From: Agrococcus sp.
Lineage (GTDB): Bacteria; Actinomycetota; Actinomycetes; Actinomycetales; Microbacteriaceae
Length of the DNA: 45,242 nt
Direction of reading: 5' to 3'
Assembly: GCA_031179215.1 (NCBI GenBank)
Contig: JAPSIA010000010.1
Coordinates: 1 to 45,242 of the forward strand
A program made the position numbers and the translations under genes. Positions 19,348 through 37,723 of this stretch are shown here, in pieces (the first letter of the stretch is position 1; every line of letters starts with the position of its first letter). The notes under the pieces were generated by a model that worked only from the letters and a program-made list of their open reading frames with translations, made no database searches and had not been told where the DNA came from.

Positions 19348-19430
19348 CCGGCCCGCGCGTGCTCGGGGCGGGCAGCCGCATCCGCCGCTCTCCCTGGTGG
19401 CGCTCAGGTGCCGAGGTCACGATGGGGGAC

Positions 19431-20291
19431 ATGAACGTCGACACCGAATCCATCAAGCACCTGCCAGAGCAGTCCCAGGAGTGGCCCGGTCGTACCGACG
19501 CCCTCGACCCCGTGCCCGACCACGGTGAGACGAGCTACACCGGCCGCGGCCGCCTCGAGGGCAAGCGCGCCCTCGTCACGGGCGGCGACTCGGGCATCGG
19601 CCGCGCGACGGCCATCGCCTTCGCGAAGGAGGGCGCCGACGTCGCGATCGCCTACCTGCCCCAGGAGCAGGACGACGCCGAGGAGACGCGACGCCACATC
19701 GAGGCCGCCGGCCGGCGCGCCGTGCTCGTGCCGTGCGACCAGCGCACCGACGAGGCGAACCAGCAGCTGGCCGAGACGGTCATCCAGGAGCTCGGCGGGC
19801 TCGACATCCTCGTCAACAACGCCGGCTACCAGATGGCGCAGGACGGGCTCGAGCAGATCACCGACGAGCAGCTGCGGCAGACGTACGAGACGAACATCTT
19901 CGCGATGTTCAACCTCACGCGCGCCCTGCTGCCGCACCTGGGCGCTGGCGCGAGCATCATCAACTGCTCGTCGATCCAGGCTGTCGAGCCCTCCGAGACG
20001 CTGCTCGACTACGCCTCGACGAAGGCCGCGATCAACAACTTCACCGTGAACCTCGCGGCGTCGGTCGGCGAGCGCGGCATCCGCGTCAACGCCGTCGCGC
20101 CCGGGCCGATCTGGACGCCGCTGCAGCCGTCGACGAAGCCGAGCGTCAAGGACTTCGGCATGAACGCGCCGCTCGGCCGCCCCGGTCAGCCCATCGAGGT
20201 CGCGACCGCGTTCGTCTACCTCGCGAGCGACGAGGCGAGCTACGTCTCTGGCACCGTGCTCGGCGTCACGGGCGGCAAGCCCGTCTTCTAG
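19431..20291 (+). CDS. SDR-family oxidoreductase (general stress protein 39-like)
   Basis: The 286-residue short-chain dehydrogenase has a 40-residue N-terminal extension (LPEQSQEWPGRTDALDPVPDHGETSYTGRGRLEGK) typical of the YdaD/YhdF-type stress-related SDRs. The cofactor loop is TGGDSGIGRA (50-59), NNAG is at 129-132, and the catalytic YASTK spans Tyr194-Lys198. The basic/acidic pattern after strand 2 suggests NADP(H), but the substrate is unknown. An in-frame ATG at 19422 (MGDMNVDTE) is an alternative start; neither has a clearly better ribosome binding site. It is divergent from purF and is followed by the tandem inverted-repeat region. Confidence 0.88.
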   Translation: MNVDTESIKHLPEQSQEWPGRTDALDPVPDHGETSYTGRGRLEGKRALVTGGDSGIGRATAIAFAKEGADVAIAYLPQEQDDAEETRRHIEAAGRRAVLVPCDQRTDEANQQLAETVIQELGGLDILVNNAGYQMAQDGLEQITDEQLRQTYETNIFAMFNLTRALLPHLGAGASIINCSSIQAVEPSETLLDYASTKAAINNFTVNLAASVGERGIRVNAVAPGPIWTPLQPSTKPSVKDFGMNAPLGRPGQPIEVATAFVYLASDEASYVSGTVLGVTGGKPVF

Positions 20292-20294
20292 CCG

Positions 20295-20439
20295 GCCGGC
20301 GCTGGAGCGCTGCGCGCTCCGCCGCCGCTTCCGCACAACGCAAGCCCGCGCGCCGCTTCCCGCGGCCGCGGGCTTGCTGCGTGCGCGGCCGCCGCGGATC
20401 GGCGCGGCGGGGCTTGCGTTGTGCGGACGGCGTGCGGGA
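20295..20439. repeat. 145-bp tandem duplication, unit 1
   Basis: The unit runs from GCCGGCGCTGGAG through a complete inverted-repeat element to the start of unit 2 at 20440. The left two thirds are nearly identical between units. No coding region was found in the 342-bp gap 20292-20633; it consists almost wholly of these two units. Confidence 0.85.
20331..20426. repeat. GCACAACGCAAG inverted-repeat element, copy 1 (96 bp)
   Basis: The ends are a perfect 16-bp inverted repeat, CCGCACAACGCAAGCC and GGCTTGCGTTGTGCGG. An internal arm at 20367-20388 (core GCGGGCTTGC) can also pair with the left end, so two alternative hairpins are possible. It follows the SDR gene. Confidence 0.8.
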
Positions 20440-20578
20440 GCCGGCGCTGGAGTGCTGCGCGCTCCGCCGCCGCTCCCGCACAACGCAAGCCCGCGCGCCG
20501 CTTCCCGCGGCCGCGGGCTTGCCGCGTGCCGGGCGGCCGCGGATCGCCGACGGCGGGCTTGCGTTCTGCACCGGCAGC
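20440..20578. repeat. 145-bp tandem duplication, unit 2
   Basis: Second unit, beginning GCCGGCGCTGGAG and carrying the second inverted-repeat element. The right part has diverged from unit 1. Confidence 0.8.
20476..20570. repeat. GCACAACGCAAG inverted-repeat element, copy 2 (95 bp)
   Basis: The left end, CCGCACAACGCAAGCCCGC, is identical to copy 1. The right end reads GCGGGCTTGCGTTCTGCA, with one mismatch in the pairing arm. The internal arm is kept. Confidence 0.8.
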
Positions 20579-20633: not shown

Positions 20634-21464
20634 ATGGCGCACGCCCTCTCTCGCACCCTCGAGTGGCGCGGCCGCACCGTCGCGTGGGACGTGATCGGCG
20701 CAGGCCCGCCGCTCGTGCTGCTGCATGGCACGCCGTGGTCCTCGTGGCTGTGGCGTCCGATCGCGGAGCGACTCAGCCGCGCCTTCCGCGTCCACGTGTG
20801 GGACATGCCCGGCTATGGAGCGTCGTCGAAGCTGCCCGAGCACGCCGTGGGCCTCGACGTGCAGGGCGAGCTCTTCGCCCACCTGCTGCGCGAGTGGCGT
20901 CTCGCGCGCCCGCATGTGATCGCGCACGACATCGGCGGGGCGGTCGCGCTCCGCGCTCGACTGCTGCACGGCGCGAGCTTCCGCTCGCTCGCGCTCGTCG
21001 ACGCGGTGGCGCTGCGTCCTTGGGGATCACCCTTCTTCTCGCTCGTGCAGCAGCACGCCGACGTCTTCGCTCAGCTGCCGTCGACGATCCACCGCGGCGT
21101 GATCGAGGCCTACATCCGCGGTGCGAGCCACCGCGGCCTCACCCCCGACGCGCTGGCCGCGCTCACGGCGCCGTGGCTCGACGCGGAGGGGCGATCGGCG
21201 TTCTACCGGCAGATCGCGCAGGCCGACGAGCGGCACACCGACGAGGTCGAGGGCAGCCTCGGCGAGCTCGACGAGCCCGTCCACATCATTTGGGGCGAGC
21301 AGGACGCGTGGATCCCGCTCGAGCGGGCCGAGCGGCTCCGAGCGGCCATCCCGCACGCAAACCTCGTGACGATCCCCGACGCTGGCCACCTCATCCAGCT
21401 CGATGCGCCCGACGAGCTCGGCGATGCGCTCGAGCGCTGGATGGACGCCGTGCGCGCCCGCTGA
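20634..21464 (+). CDS. Alpha/beta hydrolase with aspartate nucleophile
   Basis: The 276-residue alpha/beta hydrolase has the oxyanion loop LLHGTPWSS (29-37), a nucleophile elbow AHDIGG with Asp99 in place of the usual Ser, and the acid/base pair Asp224 (GEQDAW) and His252 (DAGHLIQ). An Asp nucleophile is the rule in haloalkane/fluoroacetate dehalogenases and epoxide hydrolases, so an ester-type intermediate on Asp is expected rather than serine esterase chemistry. The substrate is not known. The start ATG follows the tandem repeats; no strong ribosome binding site is visible. Its stop is one base from the stop of the convergent kbl. Confidence 0.88.
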   Translation: MAHALSRTLEWRGRTVAWDVIGAGPPLVLLHGTPWSSWLWRPIAERLSRAFRVHVWDMPGYGASSKLPEHAVGLDVQGELFAHLLREWRLARPHVIAHDIGGAVALRARLLHGASFRSLALVDAVALRPWGSPFFSLVQQHADVFAQLPSTIHRGVIEAYIRGASHRGLTPDALAALTAPWLDAEGRSAFYRQIAQADERHTDEVEGSLGELDEPVHIIWGEQDAWIPLERAERLRAAIPHANLVTIPDAGHLIQLDAPDELGDALERWMDAVRAR

Positions 21465-23709: not shown

Positions 23710-23835
23710 CGACGGGCGGCGGGTGTGCCGCCCCCATCCTGCCACCCGATCTCGACGGCCATGCCGGGCCGATGTGCCGCGCAGGTGCACATCGGCGCGG
23801 GATGGCCGTTGGCCAGAGGGAGCGGGGGCGCTCGG

Positions 23836-34460: not shown

Positions 34461-36824
34461 ATGCGAGCAATGGCACCGAACGACTCGCGCCCTCAGGGCG
34501 CACGCCGACCGAACGACCGAGACAGCAGCAGCCGACCCGGCTCCCGCAGCAAGGGCCACCGCGGCTACCGCGACGAGCAGCCCTCGAAGGGCCGCTGGAG
34601 CCGCGACGAGCGCGACCGCCGCGACGGCGCGCAGCGCGGCGACTCCCGCCGCCCGCAGTGGACCCCGCCGGAGGAGCGGAGCCGCGACCGCGCCCCCTCG
34701 TTCCGCACGCGCGGCGGCGCCCAGGGCGGCCGCGACCACCAGCGCGACGACCGCCTGCACCGCGGGGAGCGTCCTCGCGGCTTCGATCGTGCGCGCGACG
34801 AGCAGCACGGCCGCGGCCGCTCCGACGAGCGCGCTCCGCGCCGCGATGACCGCGGTGAGCGCCGCTTCGACGACCGTGCGCCGCGCCGCGACGACCGCGG
34901 TGAGCGCCACTTCGACCAGCGCGGACCGCGCCGCGATGACCGCGGTGAGCGTCGCTTCGAGGACCGCGCTCCGCGTCGTGACGACCGCAGCGAGCGTCGC
35001 TTCGACGACCGTGCGCCGCGTCGTGACGACCGCGGTGAGCGTCGCTTCGATGACCGTGCACCTCGCCGCTTCGACGACCGTGCGCCCCGCCGCTTCGACG
35101 ACCGCGCTCCGCGTCGTGATGACCGCGGTCCGGCTCGCGACGAGGGCGCCGCGCGCCGCGATGACCGCGGTGAGCGTCGCTTCGACGACCGTGCGCCGCG
35201 TCGCTATGACCGCGGCGAGCGTCGCTTCGACGACCGCGCGCCCCGCCGGTTCGACGACCGTGCTCCGCGTCGTGATGACCGCGGTCCGGCTCGCGACGAG
35301 CGCGCCCCGCGCCGCGATGACCGCGGCGAGCGTCGCTTCGACGACCGCGCGCCCCGCCGGTTCGACGACCGTGCTCCGCGTCGTGATGACCGCGGTCCGG
35401 CTCGCGACGACCGCGCCCCGCGCCGCGACGACCGCGCCCCTCGCTCCGACGAGCGTCCCCGCCGCGACGACCGCGCCCCCCGCTCCGACCGCTTTGACGA
35501 GCAGCCGCGCCGCGACAGCACCTACTACCCGTCCAAGGACGCCAACCCCTTCGAGCCGAAGGAGGACGTCGTCCTCGAGCGCCTCGAGGCGACGTCGATC
35601 CGCGCCGAGGACGTCGAGGGCGTCTCGTTCACCGATCTCGGCCTCGGCGCCGGCATCGCGGGCGCGCTGAAGTCGATGGGCGCGGAGTCGCCCTTCCCGA
35701 TCCAGGCAGCGACCATCCCCGACGTGATCGCCGGGCGCGACGTCCTCGGCCGTGGCCGCACGGGCTCGGGCAAGTCGATCGCCTTCGGCGCCCCCATCGT
35801 CGAGATGCTGCTGCGCAACCGCCCCGAGCGCCGCGAGATCGGCCGCGCCCCCCGCGCGCTCGTCCTCGCTCCCACGCGCGAGCTCGCCCAGCAGCTCAAC
35901 CACACGATCATGGGGCTCGGCCGCGCGGTGGGCGTCTTCACGACCGTCATCGTCGGCGGCGTCAAGCAGGATCGCCAGGTCGAGGCGCTGCGTCGCGGTG
36001 TCGACATCGTCATCGGGACCCCCGGTCGCATCGAGGACCTCGTCGAGCAGCGCCGCCTCAACCTCGGCGCGGTCGAGGTCGCGGTCGTGGACGAGGCAGA
36101 TCACATGTGCGAGCTCGGCTTCCTCGAGCCCGTGCAGCGCATCCTGCGCCGGACGAAGCCCGGCAGCCAGAAGCTGCTCTTCTCGGCGACGCTCGACGCC
36201 GAGGTGCAGACGATCGTCAAGGAGTTCCTGCCCGAGCCCGCCGTGCACGAGGTGGCGGGCGAGGAGCAGTCGACCTCGACGATCGATCACCAGGTGCTCG
36301 TCACCGATCGCTACGACAAGGATGCGGTGCTCGAGCAGATCGTGCGCAACCCCGGCCGCATCGTGGTCTTCACCCGCACCCGCGCCTACGCCGAGCGGCT
36401 CACCGAGCAGTTCGACGACGCGGGCGTCGCGGCGGTGAGCCTCCACGGCGACCTCACCCAGGCCAAGCGCACCCGCTCGCTCGAGAAGCTGCGCCGCGGC
36501 AAGGTCGACGTGCTCGTCGCGACCGATGTCGCTGCGCGCGGCATCCACATCGACGATGTGGCGCTCGTCGTGCAGGCCGACCCGCCGGACGAGTACAAGA
36601 CCTACCTGCACCGCGCCGGCCGCACCGGCCGCGCGGGCAACGACGGCCGCGTCGTCACGGTCATCGCGCCCGCTCGGCGCAAGCGCACCCAGCAGCTGCT
36701 CGACCGGGCGGAGATCGAGGCGCCGATGATCCCCGTGCGCCCCGGCGACGACCTGCTCGACACGCTCACGGCGCCGCCCGCGGCGGCGGCCCAGGCACCG
36801 GCCCCGGTGGGCGCCGACGCCTGA
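34461..36824 (+). CDS. DEAD-box RNA helicase with long Arg/Asp repeat N-terminus
   Basis: The 787-residue protein has a disordered N-terminal third (about 1-355) made mostly of degenerate [15 protein letters not shown] repeats, then a full DEAD-box core. Visible motifs are Q motif FPIQAATIP, motif [32 protein letters not shown], and in the second RecA domain the [13 protein letters not shown] and [10 protein letters not shown] motifs. It unwinds RNA with ATP; likely roles are ribosome assembly or RNA decay. The highly charged mixed tail is of the kind that drives RNA-protein condensates. ATG codons at 34461 and 34470 are both possible. The 3' end precedes an inverted-repeat element. Confidence 0.93.
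34820..35515 (+). repeat. Degenerate tandem coding repeats in the helicase N-terminus
   Basis: About 700 bp of 24-48-bp units encode variants of [15 protein letters not shown]. Longer blocks such as [17 protein letters not shown] recur three to four times, showing recent unequal exchange. Confidence 0.9.
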
Positions 36825-36847: not shown

Positions 36848-36942
36848 CCGCACAACGCAAGCCCGCAGCAGCAGAGACGGCCCGGATCCTCGTGACCCGG
36901 GCCGTCTCGCGCTGCGGGCGCCCGCTCGACTTGCGTTGTGCG
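36848..36942. repeat. GCACAACGCAAG inverted-repeat element, copy 3 (95 bp)
   Basis: The ends CGCACAACGCAAG (36849-36861) and CTTGCGTTGTGCG (36930-36942) are perfect inverted repeats. Inside are CCCGCAGC/GCTGCGGG (36862-36869, 36911-36918) and a strong inner hairpin. The interior differs from copies 1 and 2, but the size and ends are the same. Confidence 0.85.
36874..36908. terminator. Strong hairpin after the helicase gene
   Basis: GAGACGGCCCGG and CCGGGCCGTCTC form a perfect 12-bp stem with an 11-nt loop, 50 bp after the helicase stop. It lies inside inverted-repeat element copy 3. Confidence 0.7.
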
Positions 36943-36952
36943 TGCGCGCGCG

Positions 36953-36958
36953 TAGCGT
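36953..36958 (+). promoter_or_regulatory. -10 box TAGCGT of the NAD(P)-binding protein gene
   Basis: TAGCGT ends 6 nt before the ATG at 36965 (leaderless spacing) and begins 11 bp after the end of repeat element copy 3. Confidence 0.5.
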
Positions 36959-36964
36959 AGGGGC

Positions 36965-37723
36965 ATGCGCATCGTCGTGATCGGTGGATCGGGGAACGCG
37001 GGCTCGGCCATCGTGCGGGCGATCAGCCGACGCGGCGGCACCCCGGTGCCGGTCTCGCGCTCGGGCAAGGCGATCGCCGGCGCCGCGGGCGCGAAGGCCG
37101 ACATCGTCACGGGCGCGGGGCTCGATGCGGCGCTCGAGGGCGCCGACGCGCTCGTGGACGCCTCCAACTCGCGCAACCCCATCGACCCGAAGCCCTTCAC
37201 CGTCGGCGCCCGCGCCATCGTCGCGGCTGCCGAGCGCGTCGGCGTGCCGCGCGCGGTCGTGCTGTCGATCCTCGGCGTGGAGCGCTCGCGGCTGACGTAC
37301 CACCGCCGCAAGCGCGAGCAGGAGCTCATCTACCTCGACTCCGCCCTCGACGCCTCCGTCGTGCGCGCCGCGCAGTTCCACGAGTGGTCGGTCGACCAGT
37401 TCGAGGCCGGCTCCCCGCTCGGGGTGATCCCCGTGGCGCTCGGCGGGCGGCTGCAGCCCGTCGCGGTGAGCGAGGTCGCCGAGCTCGTCGCCGACGAGGC
37501 GCTCGAGCCCAGCGGCAAGCGCTTCCTCGAGATCGCGGGTCCGCAGGTGCGCCTCTCCCGCGAGCTCGCGAAGGCGTGGCAGGCGAGGACGGGGGCGCGC
37601 GGGCTCATCGTCAACGGCCCCTTCCCGCCGTCGCTGCTCGACTACCTGCGATCCGGGGCGAACCTCAGCGAGCAGCGCAAGGGCAGGATCACCTTCGAGG
37701 AGTGGCTCGAGCGCCGCCGCTGA
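36965..37723 (+). CDS. NAD(P)-binding atypical SDR (NmrA-like)
   Basis: The 252-residue protein begins with the Rossmann loop MRIVVIGGSGNAGSAIVRAI and continues with the layout of atypical short-chain dehydrogenases: ALVDASN, RAVVLSILGVERS and a C-terminal substrate region. The usual YxxxK is replaced by YHRRKREQELIY, so true dehydrogenase activity is doubtful; NmrA-like sensors or quinone reductase-like enzymes are alternatives. The ATG is fixed by a TAGCGT box 6 nt upstream. The gene is alone between the helicase and recQ. Confidence 0.82.
   Translation: MRIVVIGGSGNAGSAIVRAISRRGGTPVPVSRSGKAIAGAAGAKADIVTGAGLDAALEGADALVDASNSRNPIDPKPFTVGARAIVAAAERVGVPRAVVLSILGVERSRLTYHRRKREQELIYLDSALDASVVRAAQFHEWSVDQFEAGSPLGVIPVALGGRLQPVAVSEVAELVADEALEPSGKRFLEIAGPQVRLSRELAKAWQARTGARGLIVNGPFPPSLLDYLRSGANLSEQRKGRITFEEWLERRR

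What the first reader, a model, noticed from the sequence alone, without database searches (positions are those of the whole stretch)
20331..20570. A dispersed 95-bp element with GCACAACGCAAG terminal inverted repeats and competing hairpin arms
Three copies (20331-20426, 20476-20570, 36848-36942) share length and ends but not interiors. In copies 1 and 2 the left arm can pair either with an internal arm (around 20367-20388) or with the right end, so two exclusive folds exist. In copy 3 the interior is replaced by a 12-bp terminator-like hairpin. Equal size with conserved ends looks like a non-autonomous mobile element or a REP/BIME-type repeat; all copies lie downstream of plus-strand genes and may modulate 3' ends.
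Basis: partly seen in the sequence, partly recalled or inferred. Interest (0 to 1): 0.72.

Follow-up and report, generated by a model that had tools for sequence, protein, structure and literature searches.

The report
Paired-end palindromes with partner nuclease gene
Short DNA elements with matching inverted ends and variable middles are scattered between the genes of soil bacteria called Agrococcus, and such families appear to belong to genes for a DNA-binding nuclease that are themselves flanked by two copies, which looks like a new variant of a known gene-and-repeat partnership.

Summary
The three copies belong to a dispersed family, 92 bp in 94 of 109 copies collected (91 or 93 in the rest), with near-invariant inverted ends, a weaker inner box pair and an otherwise near-random interior. 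It was found only in Agrococcus, 0-29 copies per genome. Competing hairpins are not supported for this family: arm mutations are never compensated and mirror pairing is close to expectation.

The main result lies outside the window. A gene for a DUF559/Vsr-like nuclease sits between two elements in 5 of the 6 genus genomes that carry its ortholog. These six are among the eight element-rich genomes; none of the other 16 has it. Homologs elsewhere in Microbacteriaceae are often bracketed by their own, different inverted elements: 20 of 58 loci against 0 of 306 control genes. Two end words read from such flanks occur in further dispersed copies only in the genomes that suggested them, 3 of 24 and 3 of 150. 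REP transposases are absent from the genus (0 of 24).

Best reading: a REPIN-like system whose partner is an unrelated nuclease. Binding, cutting and spreading by it are inferred.

The parts
20333..20424 (+). Element copy 1, 92 bp; end boxes 20333-20346 and 20411-20424, inner box CCGCGGC 20360-20366
20478..20569 (+). Element copy 2, 92 bp; one mismatch in the right 12-mer
20295..20569 (.). Tandem duplication of about 130 bp (20295-20424 and 20440-20569, offset 145) that produced copies 1 and 2
   Evidence: read by eye; interior identity 0.87
36850..36941 (+). Element copy 3, 92 bp; paired boxes in the orthologous spacer of 7 of 20 other genomes examined
36874..36908 (+). Terminator-like hairpin GAGACGGCCCGG..CCGGGCCGTCTC at the centre of copy 3; a similar hairpin is in G006 where the left box is missing
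36931..36958 (+). Possible promoter of the next gene: TTGCGT (inside the right end box), 16 bp, TAGCGT, then ATG at 36965; judged by eye only
19422..20291 (+). Neighbour gene: short-chain dehydrogenase
20634..21464 (+). Neighbour gene: alpha/beta hydrolase
34470..36824 (+). Neighbour gene: DEAD-box helicase
36965..37723 (+). Neighbour gene: NAD(P)H-binding protein (PF13460)

Best explanation
The finding is one family of a REPIN-like class of paired-end elements: two asymmetric ends of 14-16 bp in inverted orientation at a fixed distance, an inner dyad and otherwise unconstrained filler. Its partner is a single gene for a nuclease of the DUF559/Vsr-like kind (relatives have an AbiEi-like winged helix at the N-terminus). 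SHOWN: a dispersed, intergenic, fixed-length family; ends near-invariant while interiors are near-random; filled and empty orthologous spacers; co-distribution with, and bracketing of, the nuclease gene; the same gene-repeat bracketing with other end words around homologs in other genomes; copying of the discrete unit to unrelated loci in a sister family. INFERRED: the N-terminal domain binds the end boxes; a protein oligomer grips both ends, which explains the fixed 80-bp offset and the free interior; the nuclease cuts at or near the element so that copies reach other spacers; sites decay once the protein is lost.
For: Fixed length and conserved ends. No arm compensation, so independent half-sites. 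Ortholog of the gene in exactly 6 of 24 genus genomes, all among the 8 element-rich ones (Fisher p 2e-4); elements on both sides in 5 of those 6. Bracketing of homologs 20 of 58 vs 0 of 306 controls after removing the DUF559 gene itself from the controls; with imperfect arms 27 of 56 vs 4 of 315, one of the 4 being the DUF559 gene. Two end words from gene flanks: copies only in G007, G008, G014 of 24 (7, 11, 8 exact pairs, of which 1, 2, 3 flank the gene) and only in G098, G100, G162 of 150 (11, 17, 4, of which 2, 2, 1 flank the gene). Nuclease residues E192, D219, E229, D231, H236, D243, D247 invariant in 45 of 45 aligned homologs. Copies 96-97% identical at distant, unrelated loci in family 2. 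Exact ends rarer where the gene is missing, rough counts 11 of 27 vs 82 of 120, p 0.014.
Against: No binding, cutting or movement was observed. Two element-rich genomes, G009 (26 strand hits) and G010 (12), lack the ortholog, and in G021 elements lie only on the 3' side of the gene. More than half of the homologs failed both bracketing tests. The family-1 proteins matched no AbiEi model at the cut-offs used, so their DNA-binding domain rests on alignment to relatives. No target-site duplication was established. In the window's own family there is no sign of recent movement: within one genome only neighbouring copies have similar interiors. In family 2 three position pairs covary (7, 24, 25), so pairing is not excluded there. 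Other genes with the same phyletic pattern were not searched for.
Confidence: 0.6

Rival explanations
1. Operator array. The elements are dyad-symmetric binding sites of the same protein acting as a genome-wide regulator or chromosome-structuring factor; host selection keeps them, the gene-flanking copies are autoregulatory, and the nuclease plays no part in spreading them.
For: Ends stay near-invariant in orthologous spacers whose interiors and flanks are near-random; the fixed length suits a nucleoprotein complex; AbiEi-type proteins bind inverted repeats at their own promoters (PMC7319586, passages).
Against: Copies occur in convergent spacers more often than background (29 of 88 vs 61 of 388) and also on the 3' side of the gene; copy number ranges from 0 to 29 among relatives; no bias around the G003 chromosome (Rayleigh p 0.76); family 2 copies itself to unrelated loci.
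Confidence: 0.22
2. Decoy or antitoxin-like sites. The nuclease is a toxin or defence effector and the elements hold it in a harmless bound state or mark self DNA.
For: AbiEi and homing-endonuclease models of PADLOC match many homologs (AbiEi up to 29 of 45, HEase 6 of 45).
Against: No partner toxin or antitoxin gene was looked for or noticed; genomes without the gene keep elements (G009, G010); the own-genome protein matches no PADLOC model.
Confidence: 0.08
3. RNA or single-strand hairpin element (terminator, attenuator or mRNA 3'-end module).
For: The ends can pair; copy 3 holds a terminator-like hairpin; interiors fold slightly better than shuffles (mean z -0.70); some covariation in family 2.
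Against: No compensated arm change in 109 copies; mirror pairing close to expectation in family 1 and family 3 (12.24 observed vs 12.75 expected).
Confidence: 0.06
4. Ordinary REP/REPIN elements spread by a RAYT (Y1) transposase.
For: Same layout as REPINs: inverted conserved 16-mers at a set distance, less conserved spacer, gene flanked by its own repeats (PMC3116915, abstract and passages).
Against: Y1_Tnp (PF01797) in 0 of 24 genus genomes while the control search rings in 5 of 14 named genomes; the ends are not themselves palindromes; the bracketed gene is DUF559. PF01797 was not searched in the other genera.
Confidence: 0.02

Closest known systems
REPIN-RAYT systems (PMC3116915, abstract and passages; PMC8049555, passages)
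   Same: Two inverted conserved end words at a set distance with a less conserved spacer; extragenic; one cognate gene with its own repeats next to it; different words for different gene lineages; decay after loss of the gene
   Different: No Y1 transposase in the genus; ends are not palindromes; partner is a DUF559/Vsr-like nuclease; no compensatory changes in families 1 and 3, which REPINs are reported to show
AbiEi-type antitoxin/repressor proteins (PMC7319586, passages)
   Same: Winged-helix domain model matches 23 of 45 homologs; AbiEi binds two, Rv2827c four, inverted repeats at the promoter
   Different: C-terminal part is a nuclease; sites are dispersed over the genome; family-1 proteins themselves match no AbiEi model at the cut-offs used
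EDxHD/Vsr-like homing endonucleases such as I-Bth0305I (PMC3943268, passages)
   Same: Weak profile match to 3r3p, a mobile intron protein (E 0.04; that this is I-Bth0305I is recalled); long target bound by a dimer
   Different: No intron or intein; gene lies between repeats; cleavage untested
MITEs
   Same: Short, non-coding, inverted ends, filled and empty sites among relatives
   Different: Interiors not shared among copies in families 1 and 3; no target duplication shown; no long element with these ends was noticed, though none was searched for specifically

Membership tests
REP/REPIN-RAYT | RAYT (Y1) transposase gene in the genome | tested here: not met
   PF01797 in 0 of 24 genus genomes; control rings in 5 of 14
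REP/REPIN-RAYT | Two inverted conserved end words at a set distance with less conserved spacer | tested here: met
REP/REPIN-RAYT | Each end a REP, i.e. itself an imperfect palindrome, GTAG- or CGTC-tagged in the large families (PMC3733652, start of abstract in listings) | tested here: not met
   End consensus GCACAACGCAAGCCCG is neither palindromic nor carries such a tag (by eye)
REP/REPIN-RAYT | Compensatory changes that keep the hairpin | tested here: not met
   0 restored pairs in 109 copies; mirror pairing close to expectation
REP/REPIN-RAYT | Repeats flank the gene of their cognate protein | tested here: met
   met with a different protein
DUF559 / Vsr-like nuclease (partner gene) | Pfam DUF559 above gathering score | tested here: met
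   23.0, 22.9, 22.0 and 26.7 bits vs 20.6
DUF559 / Vsr-like nuclease (partner gene) | Intact active-site residues | tested here: met
   E192, D219, E229, D231, H236, D243, D247 in 45 of 45; which of them are catalytic is inferred
DUF559 / Vsr-like nuclease (partner gene) | Nuclease fold and activity | tested here: inconclusive
   AlphaFold model from two sequences unusable, mean pLDDT 44.7; activity not testable here
MITE | Target-site duplication and a transposon with the same ends | tested here: inconclusive
   Filled and empty spacers too diverged to read a duplication; no search for a longer element with these ends
Structured RNA / riboswitch | Covariation supporting a fold | tested here: not met
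   for family 1; partial covariation in family 2

The most novel reading that the evidence does not exclude
A second, independently evolved class of replicating repeat populations in bacterial genomes, widespread in Microbacteriaceae: a domesticated homing-type (Vsr/EDxHD-like) nuclease with an AbiEi-like DNA-binding domain recognises two asymmetric ends at a ruler-like spacing and spreads non-autonomous paired-end elements, each gene lineage with its own end word, without any transposase.
Probability: 0.45. Interest if true: 0.9.

Novelty: new variant of a known kind. Interest (0 to 1): 0.78.

Why it matters
REPINs are tied to one enzyme family, the RAYTs. A parallel system built on an unrelated nuclease would show that the life style of one gene with its own repeat population arose more than once, would give a role to a large orphan DUF559 family (homologs in 101 of 150 Microbacteriaceae genomes), and would offer families of apparently different age (family 2 young, family 1 old) in which spread and persistence can be compared directly.

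Tried and rejected
Hairpin or RNA switch: mirror-pair, stem-scan and arm-mutation tests gave no support in family 1; family 2 shows partial covariation, which may instead reflect lineage-specific end words. RAYT partner: 0 of 24. Phage link: exact pairs in viral contigs 0; a homolog search of viral contigs could not run. Position signal on the chromosome: none on G003 apart from slight clustering (28 places; three gaps under 3 kb, p 0.04). A gene that I took for lipB (recognised by eye) as conserved neighbour of the nuclease gene: only G019 and G023 of 13 genomes hit, so the empty site of the gene was not characterised. Structure: one AlphaFold job with two sequences was unusable, so no fold search was made. 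Literature: nine text searches; nothing in their listings dealt with these repeats or with DUF559 genes and palindromes; the library lacks most subscription papers and preprints.

Limits of counts: one search scored at most 150 candidates per genome, so copy numbers are lower bounds; copies were detected by their ends, which inflates end conservation, although up to 5 mismatches were allowed and none had more than 3. Rows dropped: L195 (odd length); L180, L189 and L195 (56 of 59 loci kept); 11 of 56 proteins left out of alignment A2 by choice, mostly for short or extended N-termini; the L120 gene removed from the controls because it is the DUF559 gene (1 of 307 became 0 of 306). The comparison of exact ends (82 of 120 vs 11 of 27) halves strand hits and is rough. 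One search used 17 copies of exactly 88 bp out of 28 listed and 32 counted. Genes come from my own simple predictor. The output was cut in the middle. The end word of family 2 had also been seen at the copy-3 spacer of G007 and G014, so only G008 was a wholly blind case.

Full report
WHAT WAS CHECKED. The genome behind the window (G000, 2.56 Mb in 231 contigs, 88% complete) holds the 12-mer GCACAACGCAAG 45 times, the reversed control 0 times. Exact pairs with N60-75 occur in 10 of 24 genomes of the genus; 31 of 32 named stretches in genome contigs are Agrococcus. A sequence-only profile finds the family in 13 of 24 genus genomes. Hits counted on both strands are 56, 58, 52, 36, 26, 24, 13 and 12 in G000, G003, G017, G013, G009, G021, G018 and G010, and 2-4 in G002, G004, G006, G011 and G015; 11 genomes have none. 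Among 120 genomes drawn from the family only the three Agrococcus genomes in the draw match (stricter filters).

ANATOMY. Of 109 distinct copies collected from 11 genomes, 94 are 92 bp, 12 are 91 and 3 are 93; mismatches in the two 12-mers are 0 in 85, 1 in 18, 2 in 4 and 3 in 2, although 5 were allowed. Fifty-four 92-bp copies align without gaps: positions 1-14 and their mirror are near-invariant, positions 26-34 carry a weaker box (about WYCCGCGGC) with its mirror, and the rest is close to background. Pairing of mirror positions is close to the expectation from independent columns. Six copies have mutations in both arms; no position is shared and no pair restored. The best interior stem scores 3.11, within the range of 40 column permutations (mean 2.79, largest 3.55); interiors fold slightly better than shuffles (mean z -0.70), which I do not explain. 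The constraint thus acts on two independent, inverted, asymmetric half-sites at a fixed distance, as for a protein holding both ends.

CONSERVATION AND GAIN/LOSS. Flank comparison gives 51 pairs of copies in orthologous spacers. Ends are 95% identical, interior positions 17-25/68-76 42%, the 20 bp outside 41%; end identity is partly forced by detection. Interior identity exceeds the 95th percentile of unrelated pairs in 15 of 51, and in 8 of 36 without the copy-3 site: some copies are true orthologs, but for most, common descent cannot be told from repeated insertion. At the copy-3 spacer the pair of boxes is present in 8 of 21 genomes, only the right box in 3 (G001, G006, G015) and neither in 10. 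Copies 1 and 2 have counterparts next to the same dehydrogenase gene in G003, G010 and G018, and G002 has no element there. Element-bearing spacers are convergent in 29 of 88 against 61 of 388 background spacers (p 4e-4); median distance is 38 bp to a stop and 72 bp to a start. On the G003 chromosome 28 listed copies show no preferred region.

THE PARTNER GENE. In G000, G003, G013, G017 and G018 two elements bracket one gene. Its product (286 aa) hits DUF559 above the Pfam cut-off. A genus search with the G013 protein finds orthologs of 70-78% identity in G000, G003, G017, G018 and G021, so six genomes in all; every other match is at most 37% identical. All six are element-rich; the element-rich G009 and G010 lack it, as do the 16 genomes with few or no elements. 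In G021 elements lie only on the 3' side of the gene. In 45 aligned homologs the nuclease residues are invariant; 41 hit DUF559, 38 the Vsr-like MTES_1575 model, 23 the AbiEi_4 winged helix. The own-genome protein itself hits only DUF559 and no PADLOC model. PDB relatives are 3hrl (endonuclease-like, 4e-9) and, weakly, 3r3p (mobile intron protein, 0.04). MTES_1575 is listed as a Vsr-type REase in PMC3710099 (passages).

THE PARTNERSHIP RECURS. Homologs occur in 101 of 150 family genomes and 62 of 85 genera. I asked whether both flanks of such genes carry inverted repeats (40-125 bp, exact arms of 10 or more) with matching arm words. Yes in 9 of 30 Agrococcus loci and 11 of 28 loci from other genera; among 307 control genes one, which is the DUF559 gene of G003 itself (20 of 58 vs 0 of 306, p 5e-18). 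With imperfect arms: 27 of 56 against 4 of 315, again counting that gene. The words differ between genes, e.g. GCGTTTCGCAGGCG (68-69 bp), TCAACGTGTGAGGT (61), ACACTTCTCGGTCT (70), GCATAACTCCTGCA (92), TCTTCCGAAATGCA (91). Loci are related to one another, so these are not all independent events. Two words were then searched. GCGTTTYGCAGGCGAT pairs occur 7, 11 and 8 times in G007, G008 and G014, whose DUF559 genes suggested the word, and in none of the other 21; 1, 2 and 3 of these flank the gene. ATAACTCCTGCA pairs occur 11, 17 and 4 times in G098, G100 and G162, again the genomes that suggested it, and in none of the other 147; 2, 2 and 1 flank the gene. Family 3 has the same plan: invariant ends, a central CCCCG dyad, 87-89 bp in 25 of 28 listed copies, and in 17 copies no interior covariation in sum. 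Family 2 differs: three position pairs covary (0.86 vs 0.67, 0.68 vs 0.48, 0.73 vs 0.36 expected, 22 copies of 69 bp). Six further words were looked for in the held loci: besides family 2 and a sub-word of it, one family gave 10 places (reversed control 1), two gave 2 each and one none.

MOBILITY. In family 2, copies 96-97% identical lie at distant loci with unrelated flanks, in either orientation, e.g. G007 at 638 kb and 1,493 kb, and G008 contigs C22 and C55. In the window's family the within-genome pairs with similar interiors (0.87-0.93) are neighbours. I read family 2 as young and family 1 as old; this is inference.

READING. Layout, spread and gene association are those of REPIN-RAYT systems, but the defining enzyme is absent from the genus and its place is taken by an unrelated nuclease, whose relatives carry a winged helix of a kind that binds inverted repeats at promoters (PMC7319586 passages). 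I commit to a nuclease-partnered, REPIN-like element. That the protein binds the ends, cuts and spreads the element is inferred. Whether the host gains is open: near-invariant ends in old copies point to continued use, and the lower share of exact ends in genomes without the gene (11 of 27 vs 82 of 120, rough counts) fits decay after loss.

Noticed in passing
window 23752-23812: A 61-bp inverted element of another family (CTCAACGGCCAT..ATGGCCGTTGAG type, one mismatch per arm) that also flanks a DUF559 paralog in G004 (L171); it sits in the spacer that holds the 92-bp family in G013 and G017.
   Followed up: partly
window 36931-36958: The right end box of copy 3 seems to supply the -35 (TTGCGT) of a promoter for the next gene; the box alone is kept there in G001, G006 and G015, which lack the left box (by eye).
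   Followed up: no
L115 (G023), spacer orthologous to copy 3: Two copies of yet another palindromic repeat (TGTGGTCAC..GTGACCAC with GGCCCTC arms) in a genome without the 92-bp family (by eye).
   Followed up: no
L106 (G006), copy-3 spacer: Three right-end boxes in a row, about 17 bp apart, without a left box: remnant or a different arrangement of the same box.
   Followed up: no
L009-L012 (G000 contig C48, 12217-12303): Extra right-end boxes 37-38 bp apart beside a complete element; a similar extra box 35 bp away in G017 at the copy-3 site.
   Followed up: no
L229 (G007) and L036 (G021): Some elements sit exactly in the middle of a longer flanking palindrome, as if inserted into the loop of a hairpin; no general excess of flank pairing was seen in 54 copies.
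   Followed up: partly
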